NCBI GenBank assembly: GCA_024362935.1
Contig: JANCRA010000164.1
Location: forward strand, 558,001-622,000
Direction: 5' to 3'
DNA from: Setophaga petechia
Lineage: Eukaryota; Chordata; Aves; Passeriformes; Parulidae
DNA length: 64,000 bases
In this document: piece after piece, positions 11,066-58,706 of the stretch
How the letters are laid out: every line of letters starts with the position of its first letter
How positions within the stretch are numbered: position 1 is the first letter of the stretch
Notes under the pieces: generated by a model
Told to the model about the DNA's origin: nothing
Seen by the model: the letters and a program-made list of their open reading frames with translations, nothing else
Database searches by the model: none
Translations under genes and position numbers: made by a program

Positions 11066-12991
11066 TCAGTGTCCATTTGCAGAGGAATCATCGGAGTGAT
11101 CACTCTCATCATCTGCATCCGAGTCATCACTCAATGATTCACCTGCCTGATGCCTTTCAGGTTGGTCACAGTTTCTATCCGGCTCATCGGCTGGATTCTG
11201 CCTCTGCGGTCGCAGGTCAGGGCGAACACATTTCGAAGGTACCCAGCGTACCCCAGTATCTGTGGATACACAAGCATACCCGCGCCCCGAAGCGATAAGG
11301 TCATAGGGACCTTCCCACTGTTTGGTGACTAAATTCCACACCCAAACCTTCGCTGATGTGCCTCGTCTGCAGCCTGCAACGAGAGATGGTGATTCAAAAT
11401 GACAGGGTTTATTTGAGTTCTGTGGCACAGTGAGATGATTAATTGTGCACAAAGCTTTTGCCAACCGACTGTGCGGGTTTTCACCCTACATTCTCTGTTT
11501 TTGTTTTTGAAGAACCTGCTTCAGAGTACCATGAGCACGTTCCACAATAGCCTGACCAGTGGGAGAATGAGGGATACCAAACTTGTGCGAGACACCCCAC
11601 AACTGCAGGAACTGCCGCACCTTTTGCGATGCGTAAGCAGGACCATTGTCGGTTTTCACAGCAGAAGGTATGCCCAGAACAGCAAAGGCCTGCCTCCAGT
11701 GGGCGAGGACATCACGGGCCTTCTCCCCAGTGTGAGCTGAAGCCCACATCGCAGAGGAGAACGTGTCCAGCGTGACATGCACATACTTGAACCGACCAAA
11801 CTCAGCAATCAGGGTGACATTGGTCTGCCAAAGCTCCAAGGCCCTAAGGCCCCTGGGGTTTACCCCCGCTGGCAAAGGCGGAGCAAGTGCATGGCAGTCA
11901 TCACATGACTCAACAATGTCACGAGCCTTAGTTGGCGTCAGCTGAAACTGCTTCTGCAGGGTATGTGCATTTTGGTGGAAAAACCCATGCGATGCCTTGG
12001 CCTGCGCGAGTGTATCAGGCTGAGGCGCCACCCACACTGGGTTAGCCAACTTGTCAGCCCTCACGTTACCTTCCACGATAAAGCCTGGCAAATCGGTGTG
12101 ACTCCTCACGTGCAGAACATAGAATGGATGAACCCGGGCCTGAATGGCACAACACAAGGTCTTCAGTAAATGAAACAAGGCAGGATTACTGACCTCCTTC
12201 AAAACCGAATGACCCAACTGCTGTGCGATATCAGCCACATAGGCGGAATCCGTGACCACGTTGAAAGGTTCCTGGGAAAATTTCTCAAATGCCATGACAG
12301 CAGCCCTCAATTCAACCAATTGGGCTGACCCATCCTCATGGCCTTCCAGAACCTGCCACTCAGATCCGTCCCTCCAGGTAACAATGGCCTTTCCTGTTTT
12401 CCCTGAACCGTCAGTAAAGACGGTGGGTCCTTGCACAGGTTCCTGACTTTTTTTGAGCCGCAAAGAAATTTGTGTGGATTTCGCCATATGCAGTAGCCTA
12501 TGGCTGGGCAGATGATAAATGATCTTCCCTGAAAAATTTTCCAGAGCACTCTGCAGGGACACACTGTTTGCAAAGCTCCAATCAAAATCCTCCCGTTGCA
12601 CTGGGAGTATGATCTTTGCAGGATCCGCACCCATCAATTGCAAACACCATTGCTGGCATTTGATTATCAAACGAACAATCAGCTCAAACAATGCAGTTGC
12701 CGTCTTCTGCGGCTGATGGGGCAGGAAGACCCATTCCAGAATGTGCAAGGAATCAGACCATTTGTCACTCCATTGGCCAATGATGCCCGTGGGATACGAA
12801 CCTGGAGTGGTGATGAACACAGTGACATCAATGGAGGGGTCAATGCGATAAACTTGGCAAGCCGAAACAGCTCGCTGAACCACCTCCAACGCCTCACGTG
12901 CCTCAGGGGTCAGTGTGTGAAGTGACTTTAAATCAGAGTCTCCTTTCAACAAATCATACAGAGGAGACAGCTGTGCATCAGTTAGTCCCAA
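11066..12991 (-). pseudogene. pol: ERV-D pol remnant: RT thumb, RNase H, integrase (alpha/beta-like)
   Basis: The reverse-strand frame opens inside the RT connection (LGLTDAQLSPLYDLLKGD). It continues through RNase H (TVFTDGSG, VTDSAYVA, RADKLAN), the integrase zinc domain (H-x-N-A-H then C-D-D-C), the core (KTDNGPAYAS, GQAIVERAHGTLK) and the C-terminal DNA-binding domain (GPYDLIASGRGYA). The layout is that of alpha/betaretrovirus pol. Two defects are visible. An in-frame TAG at 11486-11488 cuts off the integrase C-terminal domain, which continues in the same frame to 11066. The first catalytic Asp of the integrase core is Asn (WQTNVT). Protease, gag and most of RT are gone, and the upstream edge meets an unrelated LTR. 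Confidence 0.85.
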
Positions 12992-16700: not shown

Positions 16701-18178
16701 GATGCGGAGAAGGAGGATGAGGAGGTGGAGGACGAGAATGTGGAGGAGAAAGAGGATGAGGACGTGGAGGAGGACAAGGAGGATGTGGAGGAGGATGAGG
16801 ACGAGCAGGAGGGGGAGGGGGAGCTGGATGAGGATGAGGTGGATGAGGAGAAGAAGGAGGATGACAGCGAGTAGGAGGAGGTGGAGAACGACGAGGAGAA
16901 GGAGAACAAGGAGGAGGAGGAGGAGGCAAATGAGAAGGAGGATGAGGAGAAGGAAGAGGATGAGGAGGAGAAGGATGACAAAAAGGAGGAGACAGAGGAG
17001 AAGGAAGAGGAGGAGGACACAGAGGAGGAGGATGAGGAGATGGAGAGCAAGGAGGAGAATGAGGAGGACATGGAGGAGGAGGAGGAGGCAGAGGAGGAGG
17101 ACAAGGAGGAGGAGGTGGAGGAGAAGGACAAGGAGGAGGACATGGATGAGGAGGACGTGGACGAGGAGGACATGAACAAGGAGGAAGACATGGAAGAGGA
17201 GAATGTGGACGAGGATGAGGAGGTGGAGGAGGAGGATGAGGAGGAGGTGGATGAGGAGGAGTTGGATGAGTAGGATGTGGAGGTGGACGAGGAAGAGGAG
17301 GAGGGCGAGGACAAGGAGAACAAGGAGGAGGAGGACGAACAGGAGGAGGCTGACAAGGATGAGGAGGAGAAGGAAGAGGAAGAGGACATGGAGGAGGAGG
17401 AGGAGGAGGCAAATGAGGAAGAGGAGGAGGAGGATAAGGAGGGCAAGGATGAGAAAGACAGGGATGAGGAGGAGGAGAAATAGGAGGATGAGGAGGTGGA
17501 GGAGGAGTAGGACAAGGAGGAGGATGAGGATGATGAGGACATAGAGGTATACGAGCAGGTGGAGGAGGAGGACTAGGAGGAGGAGGACGAGGACGAGGAT
17601 GTGGAGGACAAGGAGGTGGAGGAGCAGGACAAGGAGGAGAAGGAGGTAGACGAGGAGGACAAGGAGGAGGGGGAGGAGGAAGAGGAGTAGGATGAGGATG
17701 AGGACGAGGACAAGGGAGAGGAGGAAGAGGAGGTTGACAATGATGATGAGGAGGAAGTGGACAAGGACATGGACGTCGAAGACAAGGAGGACAAGGAGGA
17801 CGTCAGTGAGGAGGAGGACACTGAAGGGGAGGACGAGGAGGACATGGAGGAGGAGCAGGAGGAGGACGACAGGGGTGGAAGAGGGCAAGGAGGAGGAGGA
17901 GCATGAGGAGGACGTGGAGGTAGACGAGGAGGCTGAGAAGGAGGGCGAGGATGAGCCAGACGTGAACGAGGAGGAGGAAGCCAAGAGGGAGGAGGAGGAC
18001 GAGGATGAGGGGGAGGACGAGGAAGAAGAAGAGGAAAAGGACATGGATGAGGACATGGAGGAGGTGGAGGAGGAGGTGGCCACGGACGAGGAGGAGGATG
18101 AGGATGAGGAGGAGGAGGAAGAGGACAATGAGTGGAATGAGGAGGAGGAACAGGAGCAGGAGCAGGAGCAGGAGCGGG
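13786..18178. repeat. 4.4-kb GAG/GAN polypurine array
   Basis: About 4.4 kb of nearly unbroken GAG, GAC, GAT, AAG and GTG triplets. The plus strand is almost all G and A, the minus strand C and T. Period is 3, with higher-order variants around GAGGAN and AAGGAGGAGGAN. Read as protein it gives Glu/Asp runs in one frame and Arg/Met in another. TAG stops recur (for example 14479, 15351, 16092, 17271, 17480, 17573), so no single acidic protein spans it. The very long reverse-strand frame exists only because CTC/CTT triplets cannot form stops. It ends abruptly in a CpG-rich block. Such tracts can form triplex (H-DNA) and stall replication, which is inference here. Array length may be affected by assembly. 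Confidence 0.9.
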
Positions 18179-20080: not shown

Positions 20081-20989
20081 ATGGAGGAGGAGGCTGCGAG
20101 GAAGAGGAAGATGCCCCTGGACACCCAGGCAGGTGAGGAGGAAGTCAGTGCCCCTTTCCCCCTCTCTCCTGATCCATCTCCCAGCCCAGCACAGCCCCCA
20201 GCTGCAGGACAACCCTAATGCCAACCCCGTCCTGCTGGGGATGCACTGGGGGGATCTCCTTCCCCTTCCCTCTGGCACGGAGACAAATCCCATCCTGTCC
20301 TTGTCCTTCCTCCCCCAGACAAGGAGCTGAGGATGGAGACCAGAGAGGACAAATCCCCACAGCAGAACCTCATGGAAGAGGCTGTTTTGAGTGGCTCCAC
20401 AGTGCAGGAATCCAATGGGGAGGAAAAGCCCCAGAGATCCCACAGGAGGAGAGGCTCCAACCCCAGCCCAGGGTGCTCTGAGGAGGAAAGACCCACCCTG
20501 AGCCAGGAAAGTGGACAGAGCTTCAGCCAGAGCTCAGAGCTGGTGGCCCAGGAGCAGCTTCATGATGGGGAGAAGCCCCACAAGTGCTTGGAGTGTGGGA
20601 AGAGCTTCAGGAAGAGATTCAACCTGATCTGCCACCTGAGGATCCACACTGGGGAACGACCCTATGAGTGCTTGGAATGTGGGATGTGCTTCAGCCACAG
20701 GTCCGACCTGGTTGTCCACCAGAGGTTCCACACCGGGGAGAGGCCCTACGAGTGTCCCGAGTGTCAGAAGAGGTTTCACACCAGCTCCCATCTCCTTGTA
20801 CATAAACGAATTCACACTGAGGAGAGGCCCTTCCGCTGCCCCGACTGCGGGATGGGCTTCAGGCACAGCTCCACCCTCGTCACCCCCCGGCGCATCCACA
20901 CCGGGGAGAGGCCCCACGAGTGTCCCCAGGGTGGGAAGAGCTTCTCAGGCCGCTCGTTCTTTACCCGACACCAACGGAGGCACCGGTAA
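20081..20989 (+). CDS. C2H2 zinc-finger protein, two coding exons, last fingers degenerate
   Basis: Exon 1 (20081-20132) encodes [17 protein letters not shown] and ends at CAG|GTGAGG. Exon 2 (20319-20989) follows CCCCCAG and completes a 240-residue protein ending in TAA. The acidic/basic leader, [16 protein letters not shown] linker and tandem C2H2 fingers are typical of a large bird family of nuclear DNA-binding zinc-finger proteins. Fingers 1-3 (starting [30 protein letters not shown]) keep C2H2 and TGERPYE-type linkers. Finger 4 ([10 protein letters not shown]) has Pro in place of the first His. Finger 5 ([10 protein letters not shown]) has Gly in place of the second Cys. After the stop, ESPECSKSF at about 21006-21035 is the remnant of another finger, so the stop is probably an acquired truncation. 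A functional three-finger protein is possible; so is early decay. Confidence 0.75.
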
Positions 20990-34946: not shown

Positions 34947-35879
34947 ATGTCCAACAGCAGCTCCATAAGGCACTTCCTCCTGCTGGCATTGGCAGACACG
35001 CGGCAGCTGCAGCTCCTGCACTTCTGCCTCTTGCTGGGCATCTCCCTGGCTGCCCTCCTGGGCAACGGCCTCATCATCAGCGCCGTAGCCTGCGGCCACC
35101 ACCTGCACACGCCCATGTTCTTCTTCCTGCTCAACCTGGCCCTCAGCGACCTGGGCTCCATCTGCACCACTGTCCCCAAAGCCATGCACAATTCCCTCTG
35201 GGACACCAGGGACATCTCCTACACAGGATGTGCTGCACAGGTGTTTCTGATTTTTTTCTTGCTTGGAACAGAGCTTTCCCTGCTGACCATCATGTGCTAT
35301 GACCGCTACGTGTCCATCTGCAAACCCCTGCACTACGGGACCCTCCTGGGCAGCAGAGCTTGTGCCCACATGGCAGCAGCTGCCTGGGCCAGTGCCTTTC
35401 TTTATTCATTGCTGCACACAGCCAATACATTTTCCCTGCCCCTGTGCCATGGCAATGTCCTGGGCCAGTTCTTCTGTGAAATCCCACAGATCCTCAAGCT
35501 TTCCTGCTCCAAATCCTATATCAAGGAGCTGGGGCTTCTGGCTGTTAGTGTGTGTTTAACTTTTGGTTGCTTTGTGTTCATTGTTTTCTCCTATGTGCAG
35601 ATCTTCAGGGCTGTGCTGAGGATCCCCTCTGAGCAGGGACGGCACAAAGCCTTTTCCACCTGCCTCCCTCACCTGGCTGTGGTCTCACTATTCCTCAGCA
35701 CTGCAGTGTTTTCTCACCTGAAGCCCCCCTCCATGTCCTCCCCATCCCTGGATCTGGCCCTGTCAGTTCTGTACTCGGTGGTGCCTCCAACTCTGAACCC
35801 CTTCATCTACAGCCTGAGGAACCAGGAGCTCAAGGCTGCAGTGTGGAGATTGTTGACTGGACGGTTTCAGGAACATTAA
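34947..35879 (+). CDS. Olfactory receptor, OR14-like, intact
   Basis: A single-exon frame of 310 residues from ATG 34947 to TAA encodes a seven-transmembrane G-protein-coupled odorant receptor. Class motifs occur in order: N-glycosylation site near the N terminus (NSSS), GNGLII in TM1, LHTPMFFFLLNLALSDL in TM2, MCYDRYVSICKPLHY after TM3, KAFSTCLPHLAVV in TM6 and NPFIYSLRNQE in TM7, plus conserved extracellular cysteines (CHGN, FFCEIP). Length is standard. It is expected in the olfactory sensory neuron membrane, coupling to G-olf. The subfamily call (bird-expanded OR14 group) rests on overall pattern. It sits between ERV-A and ERV-B with no other receptor in the window. Confidence 0.92.
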   Translation: MSNSSSIRHFLLLALADTRQLQLLHFCLLLGISLAALLGNGLIISAVACGHHLHTPMFFFLLNLALSDLGSICTTVPKAMHNSLWDTRDISYTGCAAQVFLIFFLLGTELSLLTIMCYDRYVSICKPLHYGTLLGSRACAHMAAAAWASAFLYSLLHTANTFSLPLCHGNVLGQFFCEIPQILKLSCSKSYIKELGLLAVSVCLTFGCFVFIVFSYVQIFRAVLRIPSEQGRHKAFSTCLPHLAVVSLFLSTAVFSHLKPPSMSSPSLDLALSVLYSVVPPTLNPFIYSLRNQELKAAVWRLLTGRFQEH

Positions 35880-41095: not shown

Positions 41096-42537
41096 ATGGA
41101 GAAACTTAAAGGGATTTTGGGCAGTAACACCCCTATCCCGCAAACTTCTCCTTTGGGGTGCTTATTAGCACATTGGAAACAGGGTAATTTTGGGAACGAA
41201 TTACGTAAAACTAAGTTGATTGATTATTGTAATACATGGTGGCCAGAATATGCCCTGGAAAACGGAAAAAAAAAAAAAATAAAAATAAAAACGGTACTCT
41301 GCAATATAACACTATTTCACAGTTAATATTGTTTTGTAAACAAGAAGGAAAATGGGATGAAATTCCATATGTTGATTTGTTTTTCTATTTGCGGGGAAAG
41401 CCAGAATGGCAGGATGAATGTGGATTATTGGTGGTTAAAACATCTGCAAATAATAAGTGTGGTGTTTATGAGGAACGTTGTTTAGAATACTTGGTGTTGA
41501 AAGAAAGCTTGAGTAGGGAAAATTATACAGATATTGATTTACAGGTAGCTCCAATAAGAACAAGAGCACCTAACCCTATCCCACCTGTTTCATCTGTCCC
41601 TATCCCACTGCCTGCTCCTAACCCACCTAGCCCTGAACCTGTCTCATCTAGTACACCCTTCCCTCTTTATCCTCCTCTCCCACCATCACCTGATCCCTCT
41701 TCCTCAGAAGATGAGCAAAATCTAACTGTGGTAGAAAGGAGAGAGAGAGAGTCAACGACCCCGGTAGCCCACAGAACCAGGAGTCAGTCTAACCTTGCCC
41801 CAGTTATGGATAGAAAAGACATGGGCTGACAAAAACGGACTGTAATTGCCCCCTTACGGCAAGGTGTAGGAATAGAAGGGCCAGTATTTGTAAAAGTGCC
41901 TTTTACTCTGGCAGATTTAGTTGTTTGGAAACAAACAGCCGGAACTTATAGAGAAAATCCTGATAAAATGGCACAAGTGGTAAAAATGGTTATAAAAACT
42001 CAAAATCCTGACTGGGATGATATACAAGTAATATTAGATACTCTGATAGATTCGACTGAGAAAGAGATGGTACTTAAAGCAGCCAAAGAGAAGGCAAGAG
42101 AAGATATCAGAAATGGGCTAGTAACAGGGAATTTAGATGTGAATTTCCCAACTGAGGATCCAAATTGGGACCCTAATTTATTTGGTGATATGAGGAGATT
42201 ACGGAAATATCAAGAGTGGATCCAAATAGAAGTTCAGAAGGCTGTGCCCAAAACTATAAATTGGTCTAAACTGTATGAGGTTCGGCAGGAAAAGAAAGAA
42301 TCTCCCACTGCATTTTTGGAGAGGCTTAAGGAGGTAGCAAGAAAATATACAGATCTCCAAATGGACACAGAACAAGCAAAGGTTCAGCTTGCTCTCATAT
42401 TCTTGGGCCAATCACAGGATGACATTCGTAGAAAATTGCAAAAATTAGAAGGGGAAGACCTAAGGAATTTAGATAAGCTACTTGAAGACTTCCACAAGGC
42501 TACAAGAATTCGCCGACCCTGTTCGGAAAGTAACTAG
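41096..42537 (+). pseudogene. gag: ERV-B gag (matrix, proline-rich, capsid), broken
   Basis: ATG 41096 starts a matrix domain (LAHWKQGNFGNELRKTKLID). A run of about 14 A near 41266-41280 shifts the frame, and matrix continues in another frame with YLRGKPEWQDECG. A proline-rich segment follows (PAPNPPSPEP, about 41620). A TGA at 41827-41829 interrupts it, and capsid resumes (PFTLADLVVWKQTAGTYREN) through KKESPTAFLERLKEVARKYT, the major homology region, ending near 42537. Nucleocapsid is absent because of the deletion. The type is clearly gammaretroviral. Confidence 0.82.
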
Positions 42538-45095
42538 CAAAGGAACTGGAGATTTGGACGGAAAATGGGCAAGTACCAAGAGATCAATACTTATTCTTGC
42601 AATATGTTGATGATATACTAATAGCTACAGAAGAAAAGGCAACCTGTATAAAGGTAACCATTGAGATTTTAAATTCACTGGGAATGGGAGGTTACAAAGT
42701 ATCCAGAGGAAAGGCACAAATTGCTCAACAGACTGTGATTTACCTGGGATGTGAAATTTCACAAGGGCAACGAAAACTAGGTACTAATCGTATCCAAGCT
42801 ATTTGTGCTATTCCAGAGCCCCAGAATTTACATGAGCTGCGAGTCTTCCTCGGGATGGCAGGATGGTGTCGCCTGTGGATCATGGACTATGGACTGATTG
42901 CAAAACCCCTGTACGAAGCCCAGAAGACGCAGCCATTCACCTGGGGCAAGCCACAGAAAGAAGCCTTCCTAAAATTAAAGGAAGCACTGACAACTGCTCC
43001 AGCATTAGGGTTACCTGATCTGTCTAAAGATTTTCAGCTGTTTGTACATGAAAGGCTACGCCTAGCACTAGGAGTCCTCACCCAACGTCTGGGAAGCTGG
43101 AAAAGGCCGGTGGGCTATTTTTCCAAACAACTTGACAATGTAAGTGCCGGGTGGCCTTCATGTCTACGGGCAGTCGCAGCTACTGTGATACGGATACAAG
43201 AAGCCAGGAAGCTCACTATGGGAAGGCACATCGATGTCTATGTACCACACATGGTAACCACTGTCTTAGAGCAGAAGGGAAGCTATTGGCTATCTCCCAG
43301 CAGGATGATGAAATTCCAGGTAGTCCTGACTGAGCAGGATGATGTCACATTAAAAACAACTAACCTCTTGAATCCAGCTCTGTTCCTAGGTACCACAGCT
43401 GAAGAAGGCCCATTAGAGCACAACTGTGCAGAGGTAATAGAGTACACCTATTTAGCAAGAGAAGACCTGAGAGATGTCCCACTAGAGCAACCGAAGTAGG
43501 AGCTGTTTACAGATGGGAGCAGCTTCGTGGAAAACGAAACCAGATACGCTGGATATGCAGTAACAACAGTCAATACAGTAGTGGAGGCAAAAGCATTACC
43601 ACCAAATACATCTGCCCAGAAGGCAGAACTGGTTGCTTTAACCAGGGCACTAGAATTAAGTGAAGGAAAGAGGGTAAATATCTGGACTGACTCAAAATAT
43701 GCTTTTGGAGTGGTGCATGTACATGGGCCTCTGTGGAAAGAAAGGGGACTATTGTCTTCTCAGGGTACACACATTAAACATCAGGATGCAGTCTTGCAAC
43801 TGATAAAGGCAGTACAAAAACCTGAACAAGTAGCAATCATACACTGCAAAGCACACCAATCAGGAAACTCCAAAATCTGTGAAGGAAATCGAAAGGCAGA
43901 CTGGGCAGCCCGACAGGTTGCTTGAAATGTGCAAACAACAATGGCATTGATACCTTTAAAGCTTAATGTGTCCCAACTCAATTTGCCTCCAAATCCAAAA
44001 TATTCAGAAGATGATGAGAGACTGGCACGTTTGCTAAATGCACAAAAGAATTCAGAGGGATGGTATGTGACTGCACAAGGACAAATAGTGGTACCCCCCT
44101 TGATAATGAGAGAAGTTCTACAGATTAAACATAACGAATGTCACTGGGGAGCAGAAGCAGTGGTAAAATTGCTAAAGCAGAGTTTAATTTCAGTACGGAT
44201 CTTAACAATGGCAAAATCAGTAATGTCAAAATGTGATATCTGCTTGAAAAACAACCCAGTGGCTAGGCCACAGGCACAACTAGGAAGAATTCAGATAGGA
44301 ATAGAGCCAGGAGACTATTGGCAGGTAGATTTTGTAGAACTGCCAAGGACTCGAGGATACAAATACCTGTTAGTGGGAGTTGACACTTTCTCTGGGTGGC
44401 CAGAAGCCCTTCCCTGTCACACGAACCAAACAAAGAAAACAGTTAAGTGGTTACTACAAGAGATTATTCCCAGATTTGGGGTACCTCTAGGAGTATCATC
44501 AGATAGGGGGCCCCATTTCATAGCTACAGTAGTAAGAGAGGTAAGTAGATTGCTGGGGATAACTTGGGACCTCCACACACCGTGGAGACCCCAGTCAAGT
44601 GGACAGGTAGAGAGGATGAATCAGACACTAAAAAGGCAAATCAGTAAGATATGCCAAGAAGCCAAATTGCAGTGGCCCCAAGCCTTGCCAATAGCATTGT
44701 TGAAGATTCAGATAAAGCCTAAGAGTGAGATGTCAGTCAGTCCTTAAGAGATATTGTATGAGAAACCATATGAATCTCCTGAGCCTAACCCTAATGTACA
44801 CGTCACAGGAAAGCAGCAAGTGTATAACTATGTTCTGTCTCTCGGGAAAACTTTAGCTCAGCTCCAGAGCATCCTCGTGTGGAACAGACCACTGACTCTC
44901 GAGAATCCGGTTCATAACATACATCCAGGAGACGAGGTGTACATCAAAAACTGGAACGAAGAACCTCTGAAAGAAAAGTGGAATGGACCCCATCAGGTAC
45001 TACTGACCACCTTCACAGCAGTCAAAGTAGCCAGCGTAGACCCCTAGATTCACTATACCCGGGTGAAGAAAGTCCATCCCAAATCACAGACTGTG
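42489..45095 (+). pseudogene. pol: ERV-B pol: distal RT, RNase H, integrase
   Basis: RT resumes abruptly at LPQGYKNSPTLFG (42489 on), overlapping the last gag codons in another frame, and includes QYVDDILIA. Protease and the RT fingers are missing. In-frame stops lie at 42531 (TAA), 43497 (TAG, just before RNase H ELFTDGSSF), 43923 (TGA), 44745 (TAA) and 45045 (TAG), all in one reading frame. RNase H has D-G-S-S, W-T-D-S and E. Integrase has its zinc motif (HNECH then CDIC) and core D, D, E (VDFVELP, SSDRGPHF, VERMNQTLK), then KWNGPHQVLL of the C-terminal domain. Apart from the stops the frame is well preserved, fitting the modest age. Confidence 0.87.
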
Positions 45096-48370: not shown

Positions 48371-50043
48371 CCCCGTCTCCCTCCCAAACACACCCACTAT
48401 CCCCAGTTCTGGAACATGGTGACTTTTCATATCTATACAACTGGTGAGAAACCACATAACGGCGTGTGATTGTGTAAACTTCAAATTCCTGCCAGAGGAG
48501 ATGAATGGCAAAAGCATCACGCACCTTCCCTCAGCCCAGGCCAGGGCCGACACCACCCACAGCCCTGGGGCAGTTCATGTCCGCTTCCTGAGGGAATGTT
48601 TCCTTTCAGTTCCTCACACTTCAAGTCAGAAGAAAGGCTGAGTGGAAGTAGCACATAAGGGATACATGTTTACTTCCTCCAGATGAGCTCACTGCTCCCT
48701 ACGCACAGGGGAAGTACCCCCAAGCACAGGACCTGATGTGTGTTTTTAAAAGCTCGAGCCCCGGCACATCTTTATGGCCCTGCTTGAGGTGAAACTGTTG
48801 CCAGGATCCTCCAGTAATGCTACCAAACATGAGAATAGCAATCAGGGAGCACAGGTACAAACACACATCTGCCCTTTATCTGCCAGGTTTAGTTGGCTGT
48901 GCTCAGTCCTGGAGAATCAAGGTTGGGAGTTGCCTAAAGCTCCTCAAGAAGCTGACAGATTTTTGCCCTCACTAAAACAGTGCCTGCTCTGTTCAGATGA
49001 TATTGAAGGACTGTGACTTTGAAATTAAATGCAGAACTATTTGCCTTGCTTAATGGCTTGGACAGCCTTGCAGTTCTTGGGAAGTTCAATGCTGATTCCC
49101 TCAAAGAACAAACCATTTTTTAGCGAAAATACCTGGGTTTTTTTTTACCAAAATATAAGAGTCTCAGGGCCTCTGCACTCCCTTTAGGTGATCCACAATT
49201 CAAGTTGTTCATCCCTTTTGGCCCAGTGAAAGGACTGTCATGAAATTTAATCTTTGACATTGAATCTCACGGCTACCTGCAAGGAAGTCCTGGAGAACTC
49301 ATCATTAGGGGACCATGTGGTCATTTGAGATACTTCAGAACATGAAGATCGATGATTCCAAAGTTGTGCATTTCTCAGTCTAGGAAGAAAGGTGCTAAAA
49401 AGAGAAAAATGGACACAAAAGAATGGGGTCCTGCATCCAACAAATGTATTGTGCCACAAGGCACAAGGGCTTGGTGTGCCCTCATCCCTCCCAGCACAGG
49501 CAGCGCCTTTCCCCTCTGCCCCACACCACACACACTGCACCCTCCTGGGGACCAAAAGGCTTTGGGCTCCAGGATTTCCCCCCCAAATCAATGACTACAG
49601 GGCAGTGAAAAGAACAAGCACTTCCAATTTATTGAATCTGTCCTTTTATTTCAAGAAAAGCGCCCATCAAAGCAATTCTAACTTAGCAAAGGCTACAATT
49701 CAACAAACTAAGGAACATATTCCTGACATAGTGTAGAAAAATACCATCTATCAACACCAAAAATAGCCTCCTAAGACTTTTCCTCAAAGATTTCTTCTCC
49801 TTCCTAAGACTTTTCTTACATCTACTTCAAGACTTTAGAATTCCTAACATTAATCCCTTGGCTTCGTTCTGTCACTTCCTATGGTGAACCCCAATGTGTA
49901 ATTTATTAATGAAAGACGAATAGAAGGCATGAGATGGCCTTCATCCTACTGGCAGGGAGCACGACAAATTTCTACCTTGTATTTCATACAAAGAATGAAC
50001 TTTATTAACACTCCTGTTTATTCTCCTCATCTGCCTGGTATAG
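48371..50043. other. Intergenic, insertion site of ERV-C at its end
   Basis: No gene is supported. The last five bases (TATAG, 50039-50043) are the left target-site duplication of ERV-C. Confidence 0.45.
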
Positions 50044-50387
50044 TGTGGAGGGACAGGCGCTCGGAAGATAACGGGTTGTTACGGAAAGCTGCAAGAAGAA
50101 GCCTCTCTTCCCTCCTCCCAGAGATAAGGATCACCCTCGGAATGTAGCCAAGGAATGTAACCCCCCTAACATAGGAGGTACCAGTACCACCCTGTACTAA
50201 CCCCCAGCCCCTTTTTACGTAGGAAACCCCCCAAACTATAAAACCCTTAGAGAAGAGACAATAAAGCCTATTTGACCGTCCACCATATTGGTGCAAGCGT
50301 CGTCTATAGCCCGAGCAGGCCAGGGTGGAGGCCGCCGTGCTGTGCTTTGGAACCAGGTCGCCTTGCCTTCGGAACCAGAAGGCAACA
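50044..50387 (+). promoter_or_regulatory. 5' LTR of ERV-C (promoter)
   Basis: TGTGGAGGGACAGG to GAAGGCAACA. TATAAAA at 50237-50243 and AATAAA at 50260-50265 lie only about 20 bp apart, so the polyadenylation signal is at or before the start of a short R region, as in alpharetroviruses. Confidence 0.92.
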
Positions 50388-50390
50388 AAG

Positions 50391-50409
50391 TGGTGCCGAG
50401 AACCCGGGA
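50391..50409 (+). promoter_or_regulatory. Primer binding site of ERV-C (tRNA-Phe-like)
   Basis: TGGTGCCGAGAACCCGGGA follows the LTR after three bases. It matches the complement of the tRNA-Phe 3' end with one extra G. Confidence 0.65.
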
Positions 50410-50516
50410 ACGAAAAGCCCCGGGATCGGGATTTCTCCTGGACAGAGGACAGCGGTCACAGCGGCAGGACCGTCTGCGACACGGAGGGGGACGCCCCTCG
50501 GACCGGCCAGATCTCC

Positions 50517-53018
50517 ATGGAAGCTTTGGCAAAGGTCGTTGATTCAGTATGTATACAGTGGGGAATTAAATGCGAGCCCAGGTACTTATCTCTCGCTTTG
50601 CAGAGACTCCTGGAGCTGGGGACGATTGAACGTCCGGTAGAAATATTGCATGCAGATATGTGGCAGAAGTGTACCGTGGCTCTGGCAGAGGACACAAAAA
50701 ACACGGGCAGTGGGAAATTTCTTAAGGCGTGGGGAAAGGTAGAGGCAGCTCTACGCCAAGCTTTAGAGAATCAGGAGGTTTGGGCTGCCGCCCGGCCGCA
50801 TCTGATGGTTACACCGAAGGTGGGGGTGGCAGCGGAAACCCAAACCCCCCCCGCGGGCAGTGCGGGCGGGAGCGTGGGCACGCAGGGACCGGGCACCCCC
50901 CAATCCTTCCCGGACCCTGAGCCAGATCCCCCAGAACCTCCCGGAGATCCCCCAAAAATCCCGGAGCACATCTTGACCCTCCCGGGGGAACAGCTGGGTC
51001 CCAAAACCCCCCCGATATCCCCCGAGAAACCGGAGTCTTCTCTGTTTGTTTGTCCCCCGCCGCCTCCGGATTCGGTACACCCCGCAGAGACGCGCGCGCG
51101 GTGTTTCTGGGGCGAACTGACATCCGCAGCCCACGGCGTGGAGGCTGCAGTCAGCGCTGAAACAGGGGCGGCAGAAAACCGGCCGCCATTCAAAAATGGC
51201 GCCGCCGGACAGGGAGGGGGGCGGGGCCCGCGTGTCCGCGGCGGGAAATGCCTGGAGGGGGAGATTGCCGCAAGTACGCCTGCGCAGGAGTCCGGCGCTG
51301 GTCAGTACTGGGAGTGGACACACACAGACACGCAGGCGCAGGGAGGAACGGGGGGGCAGGCATTCGCCCGGGGGCTGCCCCCACCGCCGCCACCGTATAA
51401 GGGAGAAATCCCTCCCTGTGAGGGGCAGGGCGAGCCCAGGGAGTGGGAACAACCCCACCTCCAAGAGGCGGGGCGACGCCGCCTCTGGGGGGAGGAGCGG
51501 CACAGCCTCCAAGGGGAGGGACGGCGCCGCCTCCGAGGGGAAGGGCGACACCGCCCCCGAGGGGAGGGGCGGGGCCGAAGCCGAACAAAACGGCGAGGGA
51601 GACAGGAAGTGCGCTTTCAGTCCACTTCCGACCTTGATAGAAGCAACACCTCCTCAGACTGTTCCACAGACCTTACCGAGTCGGGCAGCGATTCGGAAAG
51701 GGAGCACACAGATACACAGCAGTTTCGCATGAAACCAAACAAATCTTTAAACAAGGTTAAGAACCAATCATATGAACTCAAGAGCCAATCATACGAACTC
51801 ACTGATTGGGGCAAAATAAAAATTGATTGTGCGGAATGGGCATCCGTGGCAGCTGTACATGCCTTTCCAGTGAGAATCACAGGAGCCCAAGGCAACCAAC
51901 AGAGAACATACACACCAGTAAATTCTAAAGATGTTCAAGCAATACTTAAAGCTGTTGCAGAAAAAGGAATTAACTCCAGAGTAGTATCCACGTTAGTGGA
52001 TGCAGTTTTTAATAATGATGATTTGCTGCCTTGTGATATAGTACAAATTACACGTATGCTTTTTGACGGGGCAGGTTTAATTGTTTTTAAACAAGACTGG
52101 ACCGATAACTGTGCCTCTGCCCTGGCTCAGACAGGGGGTGAGGGGCAACCACTGCACGGCTCGAGTTTATCCCGGCTACTGGGAAAACATGATGACGTAG
52201 CCACACCCCAAACACAGGCTGCACTGCTCAGAGCTGAGGAAGTCAGGGCAAGTTGCCGAGCCGCCAGGGAGGCGATTCGTTCAACTTGTAGGGTTGTGGA
52301 CAAGCCAGCACCCTGGTCCACCATAAAACAAGGGGAAAGTGAAGGATTTACACAATTCGTAGACAGGCTACAGGCGGCTGTGGACACCTCCACCCTGCCT
52401 CCTCAGGCGAAGGGCCCGGTGGTTGCTGACTGCCTTAGGCAACAATGTAATACAGTCACCAAGGACATTTTACGCTCCCTACCGGCCGGTGCCAGCCTGG
52501 CAGACATGATTAAACACGTAGTGAAAGAAGAGCAGCTGAGTCCCATACAAGCAGCTGTTCACACCCTAACCAGTGCACTGGCTTGCTTTAAATGTGGACA
52601 AGCGGGGCACGTGGCAGCGACATGTACCCAGCCGACACAGCCCACCCGTTCGGCTCCCCCATCCCAGCAAAACACGAGAGGGACTTGCTGGAGTTGTGGG
52701 AAAAAGGGGCACTTTGCTAGAGACTGCAGGTCCCGCCCACGGGGAAACGGGAGAGGGAGGGGGCGCCCGGGCCACACGCAGCCTCCTCCCGCTTTGAATG
52801 TGAGACGGCCCGTCCAGGTGAACCCCCAGTGGGGGGGAGGATACATTCTGCTCCCGCAGGAGACAGTCAATACAGCACCCCCCACACCGATACAGTTGCA
52901 GGGCTCTGCAACACCACAGATAATACCCCCACACACCTCAGTGCCACAAGCCACGCAAGCGCCACAGAGCCAGCAGGGGACGCCCCAAACCGGGATCCCT
53001 GGGTGGCCCTGGTCATGA
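50517..53018 (+). CDS. gag: ERV-C Gag polyprotein
   Basis: 833 residues from ATG 50517 to TGA, no internal stop. The matrix start (MEALAKVV) is alpharetrovirus-like. Residues ~90-420 are rich in Pro, Gly, Arg and Glu, with a PPPY late-domain motif ending at about residue 294 (51387-51398) that would recruit the budding machinery. A run of ~10-residue R/G/E repeats follows (51460-51590). Capsid is recognised by WASVAAVHAFPVRIT and the major homology region near residue 605 (EGFTQFVDRL). Nucleocapsid has two CCHC zinc knuckles (52584-52625 and 52686-52727) for RNA packaging. Earlier in-frame sequence from the LTR lacks an ATG, so 50517 is the natural start. A -1 slippery site lies near the 3' end. 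Confidence 0.92.
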   Translation: MEALAKVVDSVCIQWGIKCEPRYLSLALQRLLELGTIERPVEILHADMWQKCTVALAEDTKNTGSGKFLKAWGKVEAALRQALENQEVWAAARPHLMVTPKVGVAAETQTPPAGSAGGSVGTQGPGTPQSFPDPEPDPPEPPGDPPKIPEHILTLPGEQLGPKTPPISPEKPESSLFVCPPPPPDSVHPAETRARCFWGELTSAAHGVEAAVSAETGAAENRPPFKNGAAGQGGGRGPRVRGGKCLEGEIAASTPAQESGAGQYWEWTHTDTQAQGGTGGQAFARGLPPPPPPYKGEIPPCEGQGEPREWEQPHLQEAGRRRLWGEERHSLQGEGRRRLRGEGRHRPRGEGRGRSRTKRRGRQEVRFQSTSDLDRSNTSSDCSTDLTESGSDSEREHTDTQQFRMKPNKSLNKVKNQSYELKSQSYELTDWGKIKIDCAEWASVAAVHAFPVRITGAQGNQQRTYTPVNSKDVQAILKAVAEKGINSRVVSTLVDAVFNNDDLLPCDIVQITRMLFDGAGLIVFKQDWTDNCASALAQTGGEGQPLHGSSLSRLLGKHDDVATPQTQAALLRAEEVRASCRAAREAIRSTCRVVDKPAPWSTIKQGESEGFTQFVDRLQAAVDTSTLPPQAKGPVVADCLRQQCNTVTKDILRSLPAGASLADMIKHVVKEEQLSPIQAAVHTLTSALACFKCGQAGHVAATCTQPTQPTRSAPPSQQNTRGTCWSCGKKGHFARDCRSRPRGNGRGRGRPGHTQPPPALNVRRPVQVNPQWGGGYILLPQETVNTAPPTPIQLQGSATPQIIPPHTSVPQATQAPQSQQGTPQTGIPGWPWS
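52832..52838 (+). promoter_or_regulatory. Candidate gag/pro -1 frameshift site
   Basis: G GGG GGA in the gag frame has the X XXY YYZ phasing for a -1 slip and lies inside the gag/pro overlap. The -1 frame is open from here to the protease. A downstream stem or pseudoknot was not modelled. Confidence 0.55.
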
Positions 53019-53365
53019 AAATAGGGAAAGAACCCCCGAAAGTGTGGGGAACATGCCGCCTATACGGGAGCCATGACCACCACACCGTGGGGCTCCAGTT
53101 CTGGGCGGACACAGGGTCGGATTGTACAATAATCCCCCAATCATACTGGCCCAGACACTGGCAAATCACAGAAGTCCCCCCGGTGAACGGAGTGGGGGGG
53201 CAAACCCGGGCGTGGAAAAGCACCCAGCTGGTGGCTGTAACACTCCACACGAACAAGGGACCAGAACAGACCGTAGCAATTTACCCCTACATTTTGCAAA
53301 ACTCTCCACCCCTGATAGGGAGAGATGTCCTCGCTATGCTCGGAGTCAGGATTTCAAATTTATAG
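52838..53365 (+). CDS. pro: ERV-C protease (pro), by -1 frameshift
   Basis: A ~176-codon frame in -1 relative to gag. A Ser/Thr-rich linker leads to a retroviral aspartic protease with the active-site segment FWADTGSDC (DTGS at 53108-53119) and LIGRDVLAML near the C terminus. It acts as a dimer to cleave Gag and Gag-Pol in maturing particles. No dUTPase domain is present, unlike many betaretroviruses. It ends at TAG 53363-53365, directly after the pol slippery site. Confidence 0.88.
   Translation, partial: RIHSAPAGDSQYSTPHTDTVAGLCNTTDNTPTHLSATSHASATEPAGDAPNRDPWVALVMKIGKEPPKVWGTCRLYGSHDHHTVGLQFWADTGSDCTIIPQSYWPRHWQITEVPPVNGVGGQTRAWKSTQLVAVTLHTNKGPEQTVAIYPYILQNSPPLIGRDVLAMLGVRISNL
53356..53362 (+). 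promoter_or_regulatory. pro/pol -1 frameshift site
   Basis: A AAT TTA followed at once by the TAG of pro, correctly phased. The same heptamer and stop arrangement is used at the alpharetrovirus pol junction. A slip continues into the open pol frame. Confidence 0.85.
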
Positions 53366-56004
53366 TAGAGGCCACTGCCGTGCACCCTTTGCTGCCAATC
53401 AAATTAACCTGGAAATCATCAGATGTCATATGGCAGGAGCAGTGGCCTTTGTCAGAGAACAGAGTGGCAGCTTTACTAGAATTGGTTGATCGGGAACTGA
53501 AAAAGGGTCATATCGAACCCTCGATTAGCCCATGGAACACCCCTGTTTTTGTAATTCCCAAAAGGTCTGGAGAGGGTTTTCGCCTCATCCACGACCTGAG
53601 AGAGGTGAACAAGACAGTTGGACCCATGGGTCCTGTACAAACACTGTTACCTGCAAACTCAGCCATCCCTGAAGGACAGCCATGCGCAGTGCTGGACATC
53701 AAGGACTGTTTTTTCTCCATACCCTTGCACCCTGAAGACAGGGAACGATTTGCCTTCTCCGTGGTGTTTCCTAACGGCGCACGACCCAATCTCCGCTTTC
53801 AATGGAAGGTACTTCCACAAGGATTTGTCCACAGCCCCAGCATCTGCCAAATCACCGTGGACAAAGCGCTGACGCCAGTTCGGAACGCCTACCCCTCTGC
53901 AACCATCATTCAATACATGGATGACATCCTAGCTGCAGCCCCATCAGCGAGTGAAGTAGAACACCTGATATCTGCGATCACAGCAACCCTCCAAGCAAAC
54001 GGCTTCGAGATCGCCACTGCAAAGATCAAGAAAGGACCCTGCGTGACCTTCCTGGGTGTAGGAATCACAGATTCATACGTGACTCCTCCCAAGGTGAAGG
54101 TCCACCGAGACATTAAGACATTACATGACGTGCAGCGCTTGGTTGGATCGCTGCAATGGGTTCGCAACGTCATCCTGATCCCTCCTGAAGTCATGGAACC
54201 ATTGTATGAACTGCTGAAAGGAAAGCACTCCTGGGAACCAAAGAAACTGACACCACAGGCAGCGAACTCCCTGGATTTCATTGAACAGCAGATATCCACT
54301 GGCACGCTAGCCAGGTGGAACCCAGCGATGCCTTTGGACCTATATGTACACTTTACCCCGAAGGGGGGAGTGGGGGCGCTGGCCCAAGGACCCCCCGAGA
54401 AGTCTCGACCGATCCAATGGGTGGTCCTTGGAAGGCCTGCCCGTGCATTCTCCCCGGGAATCGAATGCATCGCCAACCTCATCAGGAAAGGCAGGAGACT
54501 CGCACTGAGACACCTAGGAACAGAACCAAAGAGAATTTATCTTCCCTTTCGCAAGCAGCCAACCACGGAGGCAACCACAATTTCAGAGTATTTAGCCCTT
54601 GCTCTCTCCGGCTTCGGAGGAGAGATCTCCTACTCCTCCAAACCACCTTGGACCCAGCTGCTGACCATCATCGACATAGACATACCACCAAAGGTCAAGG
54701 ACCGACCTCAGCCAGGACCAACAGTTTTCACGGATGCTTCTTCCACAACTTCAACTGCAACAGCAGTGTGGCAGACAGGAGAGCAGTGGCACTGTGTCAA
54801 AGCGTGTGACCCCACACTGTCAGTGCAGCAGCTGGAAGCAGCAGCAGTAGTTCTGGCATGCGGACTTTTCCGAGATGAGCACCTCAACATTGTAACGGAC
54901 TCTATATTCGTGGCAAGGCTCTGCCTAGCCATGACAGGACCAGGTGTGTCAACATCAACAGCAGCTCTGATGCTGGAAGAAGCACTGTCTTCACGGAAGG
55001 GCACCATATCCGTCATTCACATAAACAGTCACAACCCAGTCAAAGGTTACTTCCAGATAGGTAACGACAAAGCAGACGCCGCAGCGAAAGGCGTGTGGAC
55101 ATTGCAAGAAGCTCGTCAACTGCATGAGTCACTCCACATCGGGGCCAAAGCACTGGCAAAGAGATGCGGGATCTCAAGAGCGGACGCAAAACACGTGGTA
55201 GCTACGTGTCCTCACTGCCAGAAGTCGCCTTTGTGGACCAGTGGGGTCAACCCGAGAGGCCTCAAGCCTTCAGAGATCTGGCAGTCGGACTTTACCGTGT
55301 GCCAGCTGCTGAAACCCCGAGAGTGGCTTGCAGTGACAGTGGACACTTTCAGCGGAATGATCATAGCCACGCAGCATCCCAAAACTGACTCCAAAGCCAC
55401 AATTCAGCACTGGCTGACAGCCATGGCATGGCTTGGCATTCCCAAACAAATTAAAACCGACAACGGTTCCAATTTTACTTCCAAACTGGTGCAAGAATTC
55501 GCCTCGAAATGGGGCATCACTTTAGTACAAGGTATTCCTTACAACAGTACCGGACAAGCTATAGTTGAGAGAGCAAATCAGACCCTGAAAAATAGAATAG
55601 AGGTGTTGGCAAAAGCAGAAGGCTTTGCCAATTCCATTCCCTCAGGGGACCAGGCACGTATACTAGCAACTGCTTTGCTAGCACTGAATCAATTCCCCAG
55701 GGGGGAAGAGGCAAACAGTCCCATTCAGAAACACTGGGCCTCCAGAGTCTTAGAGGAGGGCCCACAGGTTGTGATCAGAAATGAGCTGGGGGAATGGGAA
55801 CAGGGCTGGAAATTGATACTCACGGGGCGAGGGTACGCAGCTGTCAAAAAGGACGGCAAAATTAGGTGGTGTCCGCTCAAATCTGTAAAGCCTGACCTGT
55901 GCAGTGAGCAGGATGAGACTGATGTGAATTGTGAGTTTCTGTTTACAGGACATGATCATAGGACGCCCTCGGGATGCGTACTCTCCCCTTCCAGAGGAAA
56001 GTGA
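53362..56004 (+). CDS. pol: ERV-C Pol: RT, RNase H, integrase
   Basis: 880 codons entered by -1 frameshift, no internal stop. RT begins near AVHPLLPIKLTW and includes LPQGFVHSPS and the polymerase site YMDD (53914-53925, about residue 185). RNase H has FTDASS (Asp at 54733), LEAAAVVLACG, VTDS and NDKADA. Integrase has the zinc domain HESLH...CPHC (55123-55218) and catalytic Asp 55288, Asp 55459 and Glu 55567, with 35 residues between the last two. The C-terminal domain includes LTGRGYAAVKKDGKIRWCPL. Every catalytic residue I can check is present. The end overlaps the env start by about 50 bases. The integrase and RNase H resemble those of ERV-D in this window. Confidence 0.94.
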   Translation: MVEATAVHPLLPIKLTWKSSDVIWQEQWPLSENRVAALLELVDRELKKGHIEPSISPWNTPVFVIPKRSGEGFRLIHDLREVNKTVGPMGPVQTLLPANSAIPEGQPCAVLDIKDCFFSIPLHPEDRERFAFSVVFPNGARPNLRFQWKVLPQGFVHSPSICQITVDKALTPVRNAYPSATIIQYMDDILAAAPSASEVEHLISAITATLQANGFEIATAKIKKGPCVTFLGVGITDSYVTPPKVKVHRDIKTLHDVQRLVGSLQWVRNVILIPPEVMEPLYELLKGKHSWEPKKLTPQAANSLDFIEQQISTGTLARWNPAMPLDLYVHFTPKGGVGALAQGPPEKSRPIQWVVLGRPARAFSPGIECIANLIRKGRRLALRHLGTEPKRIYLPFRKQPTTEATTISEYLALALSGFGGEISYSSKPPWTQLLTIIDIDIPPKVKDRPQPGPTVFTDASSTTSTATAVWQTGEQWHCVKACDPTLSVQQLEAAAVVLACGLFRDEHLNIVTDSIFVARLCLAMTGPGVSTSTAALMLEEALSSRKGTISVIHINSHNPVKGYFQIGNDKADAAAKGVWTLQEARQLHESLHIGAKALAKRCGISRADAKHVVATCPHCQKSPLWTSGVNPRGLKPSEIWQSDFTVCQLLKPREWLAVTVDTFSGMIIATQHPKTDSKATIQHWLTAMAWLGIPKQIKTDNGSNFTSKLVQEFASKWGITLVQGIPYNSTGQAIVERANQTLKNRIEVLAKAEGFANSIPSGDQARILATALLALNQFPRGEEANSPIQKHWASRVLEEGPQVVIRNELGEWEQGWKLILTGRGYAAVKKDGKIRWCPLKSVKPDLCSEQDETDVNCEFLFTGHDHRTPSGCVLSPSRGK
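55939..55948 (+). promoter_or_regulatory. env splice acceptor
   Basis: TTTCTGTTTACAG ends at 55948, four bases before the env ATG at 55952, with a good pyrimidine tract. A donor could be AAG|GT at 50534/50535, after six gag codons, the position used by alpharetroviruses. Donor and acceptor are both in phase 0 with the env frame. Confidence 0.6.
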
Positions 56005-57874
56005 CAGACCACCAAACCGTCAGACAGCGCCTGAGAAACCCCCAAGAGTGAGACCCAAGCAGCAACAGTGCTTCTGTGTGATACTGCTGCTGGGGCTTGT
56101 CACCAGAGGGCAAGCCAGCTCAGAACACTACCCCCATCAGCCCTTCAGGTGGGTCATGCAACATCTCACCGACAATAAGATACTCAAAGACATCACCACA
56201 CCGAACACCCCATCTTTCGTGCTTCGCGTTACAGATCTGTTTCCAGGACAACCAAAGGTAGACCCCCATTCTCCACACGCCACACACATGTACCTATCTT
56301 ACTGGTGCCCAGCTTCAAACCCAGGAAAGAGCTACTGTAACCAACCGGGGTGGGGACATTGTGGGCACTGGGGCTGTGAAACAATAGTCACGGACGCCAG
56401 GCCATCAGGGCCCGGATGGGACCCTCAAGAGCCCGACAAGTTCCTACAATTCACCTGGGCACCTGCAAGATGCAAAACACCAGTCTTCCTTCACGGAAAT
56501 TACTATCGGAACCGCCATAAAATCCCCAGAATTCGAAAATGCACTCATTACAACATGACAGTTTTACAGCCAAATCACCCTAGCTGGGCAGTGGGCAAAG
56601 CGTGGACAGTGGTCCTTCAAGGGTCAAAGCAATGGGTGAACGTACGAATTACCAGGCTTTTACCATCAGCACCCCGAGCAGTTGGACCCAACAAAGTGAT
56701 AAAAAGCACGCAGAAAGGGAGGAACGTAACCTACCCTAAACCCCTACCCACAAGGGACACAAAGGTCCCAACCGGCGATGAGGAAGCCTTCCAGATAGGC
56801 CACTCAGCCGTGTCAGATTCAGACCCGATCCTTCGTATGTTAGATGCTACCTTCCTATCCCTGAACGAATCTAACCCTAACCTAACTGACTCCTGTTGGC
56901 TTTGTTATGATATTAAACCCCCTTTTTATGAAGGAGTCGCTTTAGATACCCCCTTTAGTTATTCCACAGCCGATGCCCCCCACCAGTGCAGGTGGGACAC
57001 ACCCCGAAAGGGAATCACCCTGAGCCAAGTCACAGGTCGAGGCAAATGCTTTGGCAATGCAACCCTAGCTAAGCGGAGAGGAGACGTCTGTACCGAAATA
57101 GTCAAGCCTGACAGGAAAAATAATAAGTGGGTAGTCCCCTCCGCATCTGCTATGTGGGTTTGTCAGAAATCTGGGGTGAGTCCCTGTGTGTTCCTTGCCA
57201 AATTCAGTGATTCTAACGACTTCTGTGTCCAAGTTCTGATCGTTCCTAGGGTCCTGTATCACTCAGATGAAGAGGTGTATCACCTTTTCGAAGACCCCAG
57301 CCGGCTCCACAAAAGAGAAATATTAACAGGTATAACTATAGCGATGCTACTCGGCTTGGGAGCTGCTGGAACAGCAACAGGTGTCTCGGCCCTAGCGACT
57401 CAGCACCAAGGACTGTCCCAGCTGCAGATGACGATTGATGAGGACCTGCAGAGGATCGAGAAATCCATATCCTTTCTGGAGAAGTCAGTCTCCTCACTTT
57501 CAGAAGTGGTCCTGCAGAACAGGCGAGGTCTAGACCTCCTGTTCATGCAGCAGGGAGGCCTGTGCGCTGCCCTGAAAGAGGAGTGCTGCTTCTATGCAGA
57601 CCACACAGGAGTTGTCAGAGACTCCACGGCAGAGCTCCGAAACAGACTGGCTCAGAGACAAAAAGAGAGGGAAGCCCAGCAGGGCTGGTTCGAATCCTGG
57701 TTCAATCGATCACCATGGCTAACCACCCTGATTTCTACCCTAGCAGGTCCGCTGGCAATGTTGCTTTTAGCTGTTACCTTCGGACCGTGCCTGCTGAACA
57801 AGCTAGTCTCATTCGTCCGGAGTCGCTTGGAACGGACTGACATCTTTTTCGTAGGACGGCAACAGATGCTGTGA
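55952..57874 (+). CDS. env: ERV-C envelope glycoprotein, gamma-type
   Basis: 640 residues from ATG 55952, no internal stop. A long polar leader precedes a hydrophobic signal core at about residues 41-50. The surface unit has many Cys, N-glycosylation sites and a CWLC motif (residues ~315-318) of the CXXC type that forms a disulfide with the transmembrane unit. A dibasic Lys-Arg cleavage site is at about residue 455, followed by a hydrophobic Gly/Ala-rich fusion peptide. The transmembrane subunit has a heptad region, LQNRRGLDLLF and a CX6CC motif (57563-57589), then a membrane anchor at about 588-614 and a short tail. CXXC plus CX6CC defines covalently linked gamma-type Env. Combined with an alpha/beta-like pol it implies recombination. 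Confidence 0.92.
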   Translation: MIIGRPRDAYSPLPEESDRPPNRQTAPEKPPRVRPKQQQCFCVILLLGLVTRGQASSEHYPHQPFRWVMQHLTDNKILKDITTPNTPSFVLRVTDLFPGQPKVDPHSPHATHMYLSYWCPASNPGKSYCNQPGWGHCGHWGCETIVTDARPSGPGWDPQEPDKFLQFTWAPARCKTPVFLHGNYYRNRHKIPRIRKCTHYNMTVLQPNHPSWAVGKAWTVVLQGSKQWVNVRITRLLPSAPRAVGPNKVIKSTQKGRNVTYPKPLPTRDTKVPTGDEEAFQIGHSAVSDSDPILRMLDATFLSLNESNPNLTDSCWLCYDIKPPFYEGVALDTPFSYSTADAPHQCRWDTPRKGITLSQVTGRGKCFGNATLAKRRGDVCTEIVKPDRKNNKWVVPSASAMWVCQKSGVSPCVFLAKFSDSNDFCVQVLIVPRVLYHSDEEVYHLFEDPSRLHKREILTGITIAMLLGLGAAGTATGVSALATQHQGLSQLQMTIDEDLQRIEKSISFLEKSVSSLSEVVLQNRRGLDLLFMQQGGLCAALKEECCFYADHTGVVRDSTAELRNRLAQRQKEREAQQGWFESWFNRSPWLTTLISTLAGPLAMLLLAVTFGPCLLNKLVSFVRSRLERTDIFFVGRQQML

Positions 57875-58048
57875 ACTCATCAGGGAACACTGCCGGTCAC
57901 GAGAAAACTCGCCTGGCAGAAATTTACTCAGGATTCCCAAAACCCCTTTTTCCTTGTTAGACCCCAACCTTCTACCTCATTTAGTGCCTATATATATATA
58001 TATATGCATGTAACTACCTCACTCATTTGTGGGAGAGAGGGGGGGAGA
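57875..58048 (+). other. ERV-C 3' untranslated region with polypurine tract
   Basis: A (TA)n run lies at about 57990-58004. The polypurine tract GGGAGAGAGGGGGGGAGA, 58031-58048, primes plus-strand synthesis and ends exactly at the LTR. Confidence 0.8.
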
Positions 58049-58392
58049 TGTGGAGGGACAGGCGCTCGGAAGATAACGGGTTGTTACGGAAAGCTGCAAG
58101 AAGAAGCCTCTCTTCCCTCCTCCCAGAGATAAGGATCACCCTCGGAATGTAGCCAAGGAATGTAACCCCCCTAACATAGGAGGTACCAGTACCACCCTGT
58201 ACTAACCCCCAGCCCCTTTTTACGTAGGAAACCCCCCAAACTATAAAACCCTTAGAGAAGAGACAATAAAGCCTATTTGACCGTCCACCATATTGGTGCA
58301 AGCGTCGTCTATAGCCCGAGCAGGCCAGGGTGGAGGCCGCCGTGCTGTGCTTTGGAACCAGGTCGCCTTGCCTTCGGAACCAGAAGGCAACA
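58049..58392 (+). repeat. 3' LTR of ERV-C
   Basis: 344 bp, no difference from the 5' LTR found by eye. Followed by the TATAG target duplication. Confidence 0.95.
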
Positions 58393-58560
58393 TATAGACA
58401 TGGGCAGACATGGGAGGGAGCGTGAGGAACTCGCCTCTTCCGCACTGCTCCAGCTCAGCTGTCTTCTGGCGACACTCCAGACAGTCCTGGGTCCCTTGGA
58501 GCCAGAGCCCTCCTCGGTTGGTGACAGTGACAGGCATGGGTCAGCTACTGCCCCCACAAA

Positions 58561-58706
58561 AGTTAACCCTAACACTTACCCTGACCCTAAGCCAAACTGT
58601 TACATGAACCCTAAATCTAAACCTAACCCTACGCCTAACCCTAACCTTAAAACTAACCCTAACACTAAACCTAAGGCTAAGCCTAAGCCTAACCCTAACC
58701 GTGGCC
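58561..58706 (+). repeat. Interstitial telomere-like repeat
   Basis: About 145 bp of degenerate CCCTAA hexamers (AACCCTAACACTTACCCTGA, later CCTAACCCTACGCCTAACCC) with variants such as CTAAGC and CTAAAC. It lies ~170 bp beyond ERV-C. The C-rich strand is on plus, so an original chromosome end would lie to the left. Confidence 0.85.

What the first reader, a model, noticed from the sequence alone, without database searches (positions are those of the whole stretch)
50039..58397. Apparently intact, very young provirus with identical LTRs
The two 344-bp LTRs show no difference by eye, TATAG is duplicated on both sides, and gag, pro, pol and env are open with the key catalytic residues I checked. 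LTRs are identical at integration and drift apart later, so insertion is recent. A full set of open genes in a bird ERV of mosaic type is unusual and raises the possibility of present activity or polymorphism.
Basis: partly seen in the sequence, partly recalled or inferred. Interest (0 to 1): 0.92.

Follow-up and report, generated by a model that had tools for sequence, protein, structure and literature searches.

The report
Young intact songbird retrovirus insertion
A retrovirus that inserted itself fairly recently into a songbird genome still has two identical ends and open genes; it belongs to a kind of bird retrovirus already described, so it is a good example, not a new kind.

Summary
The LTRs (50044-50387, 58049-58392) are identical at 344 of 344 positions and TATAG flanks both sides. 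gag, pro, pol and env are open with the expected domains and motifs. Env and Pol lack gaps against close relatives and match every column invariant among 19 relatives.

It is a complete provirus: RSV-like CA, PR and IN, separate pro and pol frames, a gamma-type env, and a tRNA-Phe-like primer site. That is the anatomy reported for the songbird group TgERV-F. Nearest Env and Pol are songbird; Pol relatives at 75-77% occur in crane, ruff and eagle.

"Young" is right but loosely bounded: zero differences in so short an LTR allow up to about 1.9 million years at 2.3e-9 per site per year. Polymorphism or present activity does not follow. "Unusual" is not supported: two songbird assemblies hold hundreds of full-length ERVs, and relatives with long open env or pol are listed. 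Copies in the same genome could not be searched: the genome search did not complete in 10 tries. New member of a known kind.

The parts
50039..50043 (.). 5' copy of the target-site duplication, TATAG
50044..50387 (+). 5' LTR, 344 bases, TG...CA, TATAAA at 50237, AATAAA at 50260
   Evidence: 344 of 344 identical to the 3' LTR
50391..50409 (+). primer-binding site, tRNA-Phe-like (one base longer than the match to a vertebrate tRNA-Phe recalled from memory)
   Evidence: alignment score 37, reached by 0 of 2000 shuffles (best shuffle 25)
50517..53018 (+). gag, 833 codons: matrix-like N-terminus, PPPY at 51387, capsid, two CCHC zinc knuckles
   Evidence: capsid nearest to RSV chains
52721..53365 (+). 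pro frame, -1 relative to gag, DTGS at 53108; in-phase GGGGGGA at 52832 as candidate gag-pro slip site
   Evidence: nearest to RSV/MAV proteases
53356..53365 (+). candidate pro-pol slip site AAATTTA, in phase, directly before the pro stop TAG
   Evidence: stability of the downstream fold not above shuffles
53077..56004 (+). pol frame, -1 relative to pro: RT (YMDD at 53914), RNase H, integrase
55952..57874 (+). env, gamma-type: CWLC at 56894, basic site RLHKR ending at 57316, hydrophobic N-terminus of TM directly after it, LQNRRGLD at 57512, CX6CC at 57563
58031..58048 (+). polypurine tract of 18 bases
58049..58392 (+). 3' LTR
58393..58397 (.). 3' copy of the target-site duplication, TATAG

Best explanation
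A complete, recently inserted germline provirus of the TgERV-F type in a songbird. A retrovirus with alpharetrovirus-like gag, pro and pol and a gamma-type env of mammalian affinity was reverse-transcribed, probably from tRNA-Phe, and integrated at TATAG, giving two identical LTRs. Pro and Pol would be made by two successive -1 frameshifts and Env from a spliced message. Shown: LTR identity, target-site copies, open frames, motifs, phylogenetic neighbours. Inferred: frameshifting, splicing, expression, age in years, germline fixation or polymorphism.
For: LTRs 344/344 identical, TATAG both sides; four open frames with full domain sets; no gap against close relatives and no deviation at 77 (Env) and 103 (Pol) columns invariant in the 19 other rows. 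CA, PR and IN score best against RSV-type chains: IN 1.8e-96 against 5e-44 for the next retroviral group, CA 9.5e-27 for RSV p27 against 4.1e-10 for HERV-K, PR 6.4e-11 against 7.5e-5. Env matches TLV_coat at 9e-112 and MLV-type and syncytin TM. Env tree: with 5 Geospiza rows at 95/97; Pol tree: 9-row clade at 100/100 with songbirds, Grus, Calidris and Haliaeetus, split from SRV-1 and IAP. A review places a class II gag-pol with alpha and beta features plus a gamma-type env in several birds (PMC3758190, passages); another names TgERV-F of songbirds (PMC10536682, passages).
Against: The original TgERV-F paper (Henzy 2014) is not held, so membership rests on two reviews and on recall, not on comparison with its sequence. 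The best PDB match of the RT part is a betaretrovirus-like polymerase (7sr6), though I do not know that an alpharetrovirus RT is in that library. In the Pol tree the fork joining this clade to the alpharetrovirus rows is open. Downstream folds at the two candidate slip sites are not more stable than shuffles (53 of 200 and 29 of 200 as stable). The window's Pol differs from 17 of 392 columns invariant in 8 close relatives, Env from 5 of 276 in 9; effects unknown. The primer site is not a perfect tRNA-Phe match.
Confidence: 0.9

Rival explanations
1. The provirus is older than its LTRs suggest: gene conversion between the two LTRs, or an assembly that used one LTR for both, made them identical.
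For: Neither process can be excluded from one assembled sequence; reads were not available.
Against: About 2448 non-overlapping codons carry no nonsense change or frameshift, CpG is less depleted in gag, pol, env and LTR (0.51-0.66) than in most of the window (median 0.19 over 28 tiles; a weak point, since an older pol fragment at 11165-12970 also has 0.54), and the target-site copies are intact.
Confidence: 0.08
2. The locus is kept open by selection for a host use, such as an Env that blocks infection, and is not simply young.
For: Env is intact and conserved in the clade; Env-based blocks are known in chickens (PMC10536682, passages).
Against: All four genes, the LTRs and the primer site are intact together, which recent insertion explains without selection; no population or expression data here.
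Confidence: 0.04
3. A true alpharetrovirus or betaretrovirus insertion, with only an unusual env.
For: RSV-like IN, CA, PR; separate pro frame as in betaretroviruses.
Against: No cysteine-flanked internal fusion peptide, pro not in the gag frame, no dUTPase domain found in pro; Pol only 46-47% identical to the alpharetrovirus anchor rows P0121 and P0122 and 35% or less to SRV-1 and IAP.
Confidence: 0.03

Closest known systems
TgERV-F (Henzy et al. 2014; seen here only through reviews PMC3758190 and PMC10536682, passages)
   Same: Songbird host; class II gag-pol with alpha and beta features near alpharetroviruses; gamma-type env of mammalian affinity; relatives in several bird orders. That the F stands for tRNA-Phe is my recall and inference, and fits the primer site.
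   Different: A separate copy in an unnamed host; not compared with the published sequence, which is not held.
[quoted passage not shown]
   Same: Same gene combination, reported in a set of at least 15 bird species (groups 1 and 2 together).
   Different: The paper itself was not seen; no direct comparison.
Songbird full-length ERVK-type elements and recent ERVK bursts (PMC11009239 section 8; PMC8310711 section 5; PMC10542752 passages)
   Same: Recent, abundant, partly polymorphic LTR elements in songbirds; 655 (2.68%) of zebra finch ERVK solo-LTRs polymorphic.
   Different: Those reports count families or solo-LTRs, not this provirus.
Rous sarcoma virus / avian leukosis viruses (Alpharetrovirus)
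   Same: Nearest solved CA, PR and IN; the slip heptamer AAATTTA before TAG is, from recall, the RSV gag-pol site.
   Different: Env type and pro frame.

Membership tests
[quoted passage not shown]
   YMDD; RSV-like CA, PR, IN; separate pro frame; Pol tree in a 13-row clade 100/100 with alpharetrovirus rows P0121/P0122, inner order open
TgERV-F-type avian recombinant | gamma-type env | tested here: met
   TLV_coat 9e-112; CX6CC, fusion-peptide-like stretch directly after the basic site; MLV-type TM chains best
TgERV-F-type avian recombinant | tRNA-Phe primer site (recalled) | tested here: inconclusive
TgERV-F-type avian recombinant | clusters with the published TgERV-F sequence | not testable with these tools
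   paper not held; zebra finch rows P0003, P0009 and P0103 are close but not labelled TgERV-F
Alpharetrovirus | avian gamma-type TM with internal, cysteine-flanked fusion peptide (PMC3758190) | tested here: not met
   hydrophobic stretch starts right after the basic site, no flanking cysteines
Alpharetrovirus | protease in the gag frame (recalled) | tested here: not met
   pro lies in a separate -1 frame
Betaretrovirus | dUTPase domain in pro (recalled) | tested here: not met
   only RVP found in the 178-codon ORF searched
Gammaretrovirus | class I gag-pol | tested here: not met
   YMDD and RSV-like CA, PR, IN

The most novel reading that the evidence does not exclude
The lineage is still replicating in living songbirds, this insertion is absent from some individuals of the host species, and the copy is one source of new insertions.
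Probability: 0.2. Interest if true: 0.55.

Novelty: new member of a known kind. Interest (0 to 1): 0.27.

Why it matters
It adds a well-preserved copy of a mosaic retrovirus group known from songbirds and gives a clean marker (the TATAG site) for asking whether such insertions still segregate. Env and Pol relatives in distant bird orders fit repeated crossing between hosts. It does not change what is known about the group.

Tried and rejected
Own-genome copy search: the genome search gave no answer in 10 identical tries, so copy number, solo-LTRs and near-identical copies are unknown. Scan of viral contigs with Pol: 10 pattern matches, none confirmed as a relative. Rfam on the window: 0 matches. 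Folds at the frameshift regions: no excess stability. CpG content as an age signal: only weak, because an older pol fragment and other stretches of the window also score high. Nucleotide selection tests on env were not possible, since relatives came as proteins only. PMC9967133 was searched for TgERV and bird terms: 0 passages. A paper search for identical LTRs with songbird terms found 0 papers; this says nothing about absence in print. Host species was not identified; the songbird reading rests on Env and Pol neighbours.

Full report
Observation. A 344-base direct repeat with no difference lies at 50044-50387 and 58049-58392; TATAG precedes the first and follows the second. Between them lie, in order, a tRNA-Phe-like primer site (50391-50409), gag, pro, pol and env in open frames, and an 18-base purine tract ending at 58048. 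Pfam and motif checks find the expected domains. The LTR occurs nowhere else in the window; the other hits to its Pol in the window are remote fragments at 23-36% identity.

Anatomy. The gag ORF has 833 codons from its first ATG at 50517 with a capsid, two zinc knuckles and PPPY. pro is in a -1 frame relative to gag and pol in a -1 frame relative to pro. In-phase heptamers GGGGGGA (52832) and AAATTTA (53356, directly before the pro stop) are candidate slip sites; RNA folding downstream gives no extra support. Env carries a basic site RLHKR that is conserved in the alignment of relatives, followed directly by a hydrophobic stretch, then LQNRRGLD and CX6CC.

Integrity. In alignments of 20 rows each (19 of the 102 Env hits and 19 of the Pol hits, of which 120 of 194 were listed; chosen by me for coverage and spread), the window has no gap where at least 6 close relatives have a residue, and no deviation at 77 (Env) and 103 (Pol) columns invariant among the other rows. 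Against 9 close Env rows it departs at 5 of 276 invariant columns, and against 8 close Pol rows at 17 of 392. Gag could be compared only poorly: 11 hits, the best at 51% over 80%.

Relationship. Integrase, protease and capsid score best against RSV-type solved chains, RT best against a chain named only 'Polymerase' (7sr6, from recall HERV-K), and Env against MLV-type and syncytin TM. The Env tree puts the window with 5 Geospiza rows (95/97), next to Sylvia borin and Taeniopygia; the mammalian rows are far outside. The Pol tree has a 9-row clade at 100/100: window, Taeniopygia, Hirundo, Catharus, Grus, Calidris, Haliaeetus and two unnamed-source rows; P0122, an alpharetrovirus by its 632-bit match to RSV integrase, lies in the enclosing 13-row clade, and SRV-1 and IAP lie on the other side of a 100/99 branch. 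Pol identity of 75-77% to crane, ruff and eagle rows (75-79% by the local alignments) is high for hosts of different bird orders and fits crossing between hosts, as the review reports for TgERV-F (PMC10536682, passages).

Age. At 2.3e-9 per site per year (collared flycatcher value as used in PMC10542752, passages; the zebra finch value of 5.0e-9 per generation with about 2-3 years per generation in the abstract of PMC12047795 is similar) zero differences give a 95% upper bound of 1.9 My from the LTRs alone, and 1.3 My with the absence of nonsense changes added. With an assumed 0.1 indels per substitution it is 0.76 My. At 1.5e-9 the first two are 2.9 and 2.0 My, at 5e-9 0.87 and 0.61 My. The data fit an age of zero, but do not require one.

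How usual is it. Table 1 of PMC8310711 (section 5) lists 298 or 552 full-length ERVs on zebra finch autosomes and 396 or 558 in the bird-of-paradise Lycocorax, by two methods, with as many or more on the W. PMC11009239 (section 8) reports ERVK expression in zebra finch gonads and germ cells and 655 polymorphic solo-LTRs. PMC10542752 reports a recent ERVK burst in the blackcap (passages). Long open Env or Pol proteins of this clade are listed for Taeniopygia (Env 637, Pol 926 aa) and Serinus (Env 648 aa). A full text search for TgERV-F found 1 paper. The finding is a good, probably young specimen of a known kind; activity and polymorphism remain open because the host genome could not be searched and no reads or population data are available here.

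Noticed in passing
13792-18174: A 4.4-kb array of purine-rich GAGGAG-type repeats with GC skew near 0.78 and AT skew near 0.65 over 14-18 kb; the opposite strand has an open frame of 1461 codons with no Pfam match.
   Followed up: partly
58564-58700: Telomere-like TAACCC repeats, about 23 copies at 69% matches, some 170 bases downstream of the provirus.
   Followed up: no
11165-12991 (minus strand): A fragment of another ERV pol (RT thumb, RNase H, integrase), 32% identical to this Pol over 613 positions, with a 501-codon open frame.
   Followed up: partly
42489-44747: RT/RNase H and integrase fragments of another LTR element with RT_RNaseH_2 and Integrase_H2C2 matches.
   Followed up: no
34947-35879: An open olfactory-receptor reading frame of 310 codons.
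   Followed up: no
20333-20989: A C2H2 zinc-finger reading frame of 218 codons.
   Followed up: no
51458-51572: A 24-base tandem repeat of nearly 5 copies inside gag, between matrix and capsid.
   Followed up: no
protein hits P0104, P0105, P0108, P0109: Pol relatives of this clade turn up in unnamed-source contigs (P0104: 26 member sequences, P0105) and inside bird gene models under host names, e.g. a 'PHD finger protein 7-like' of Grus japonensis.
   Followed up: no
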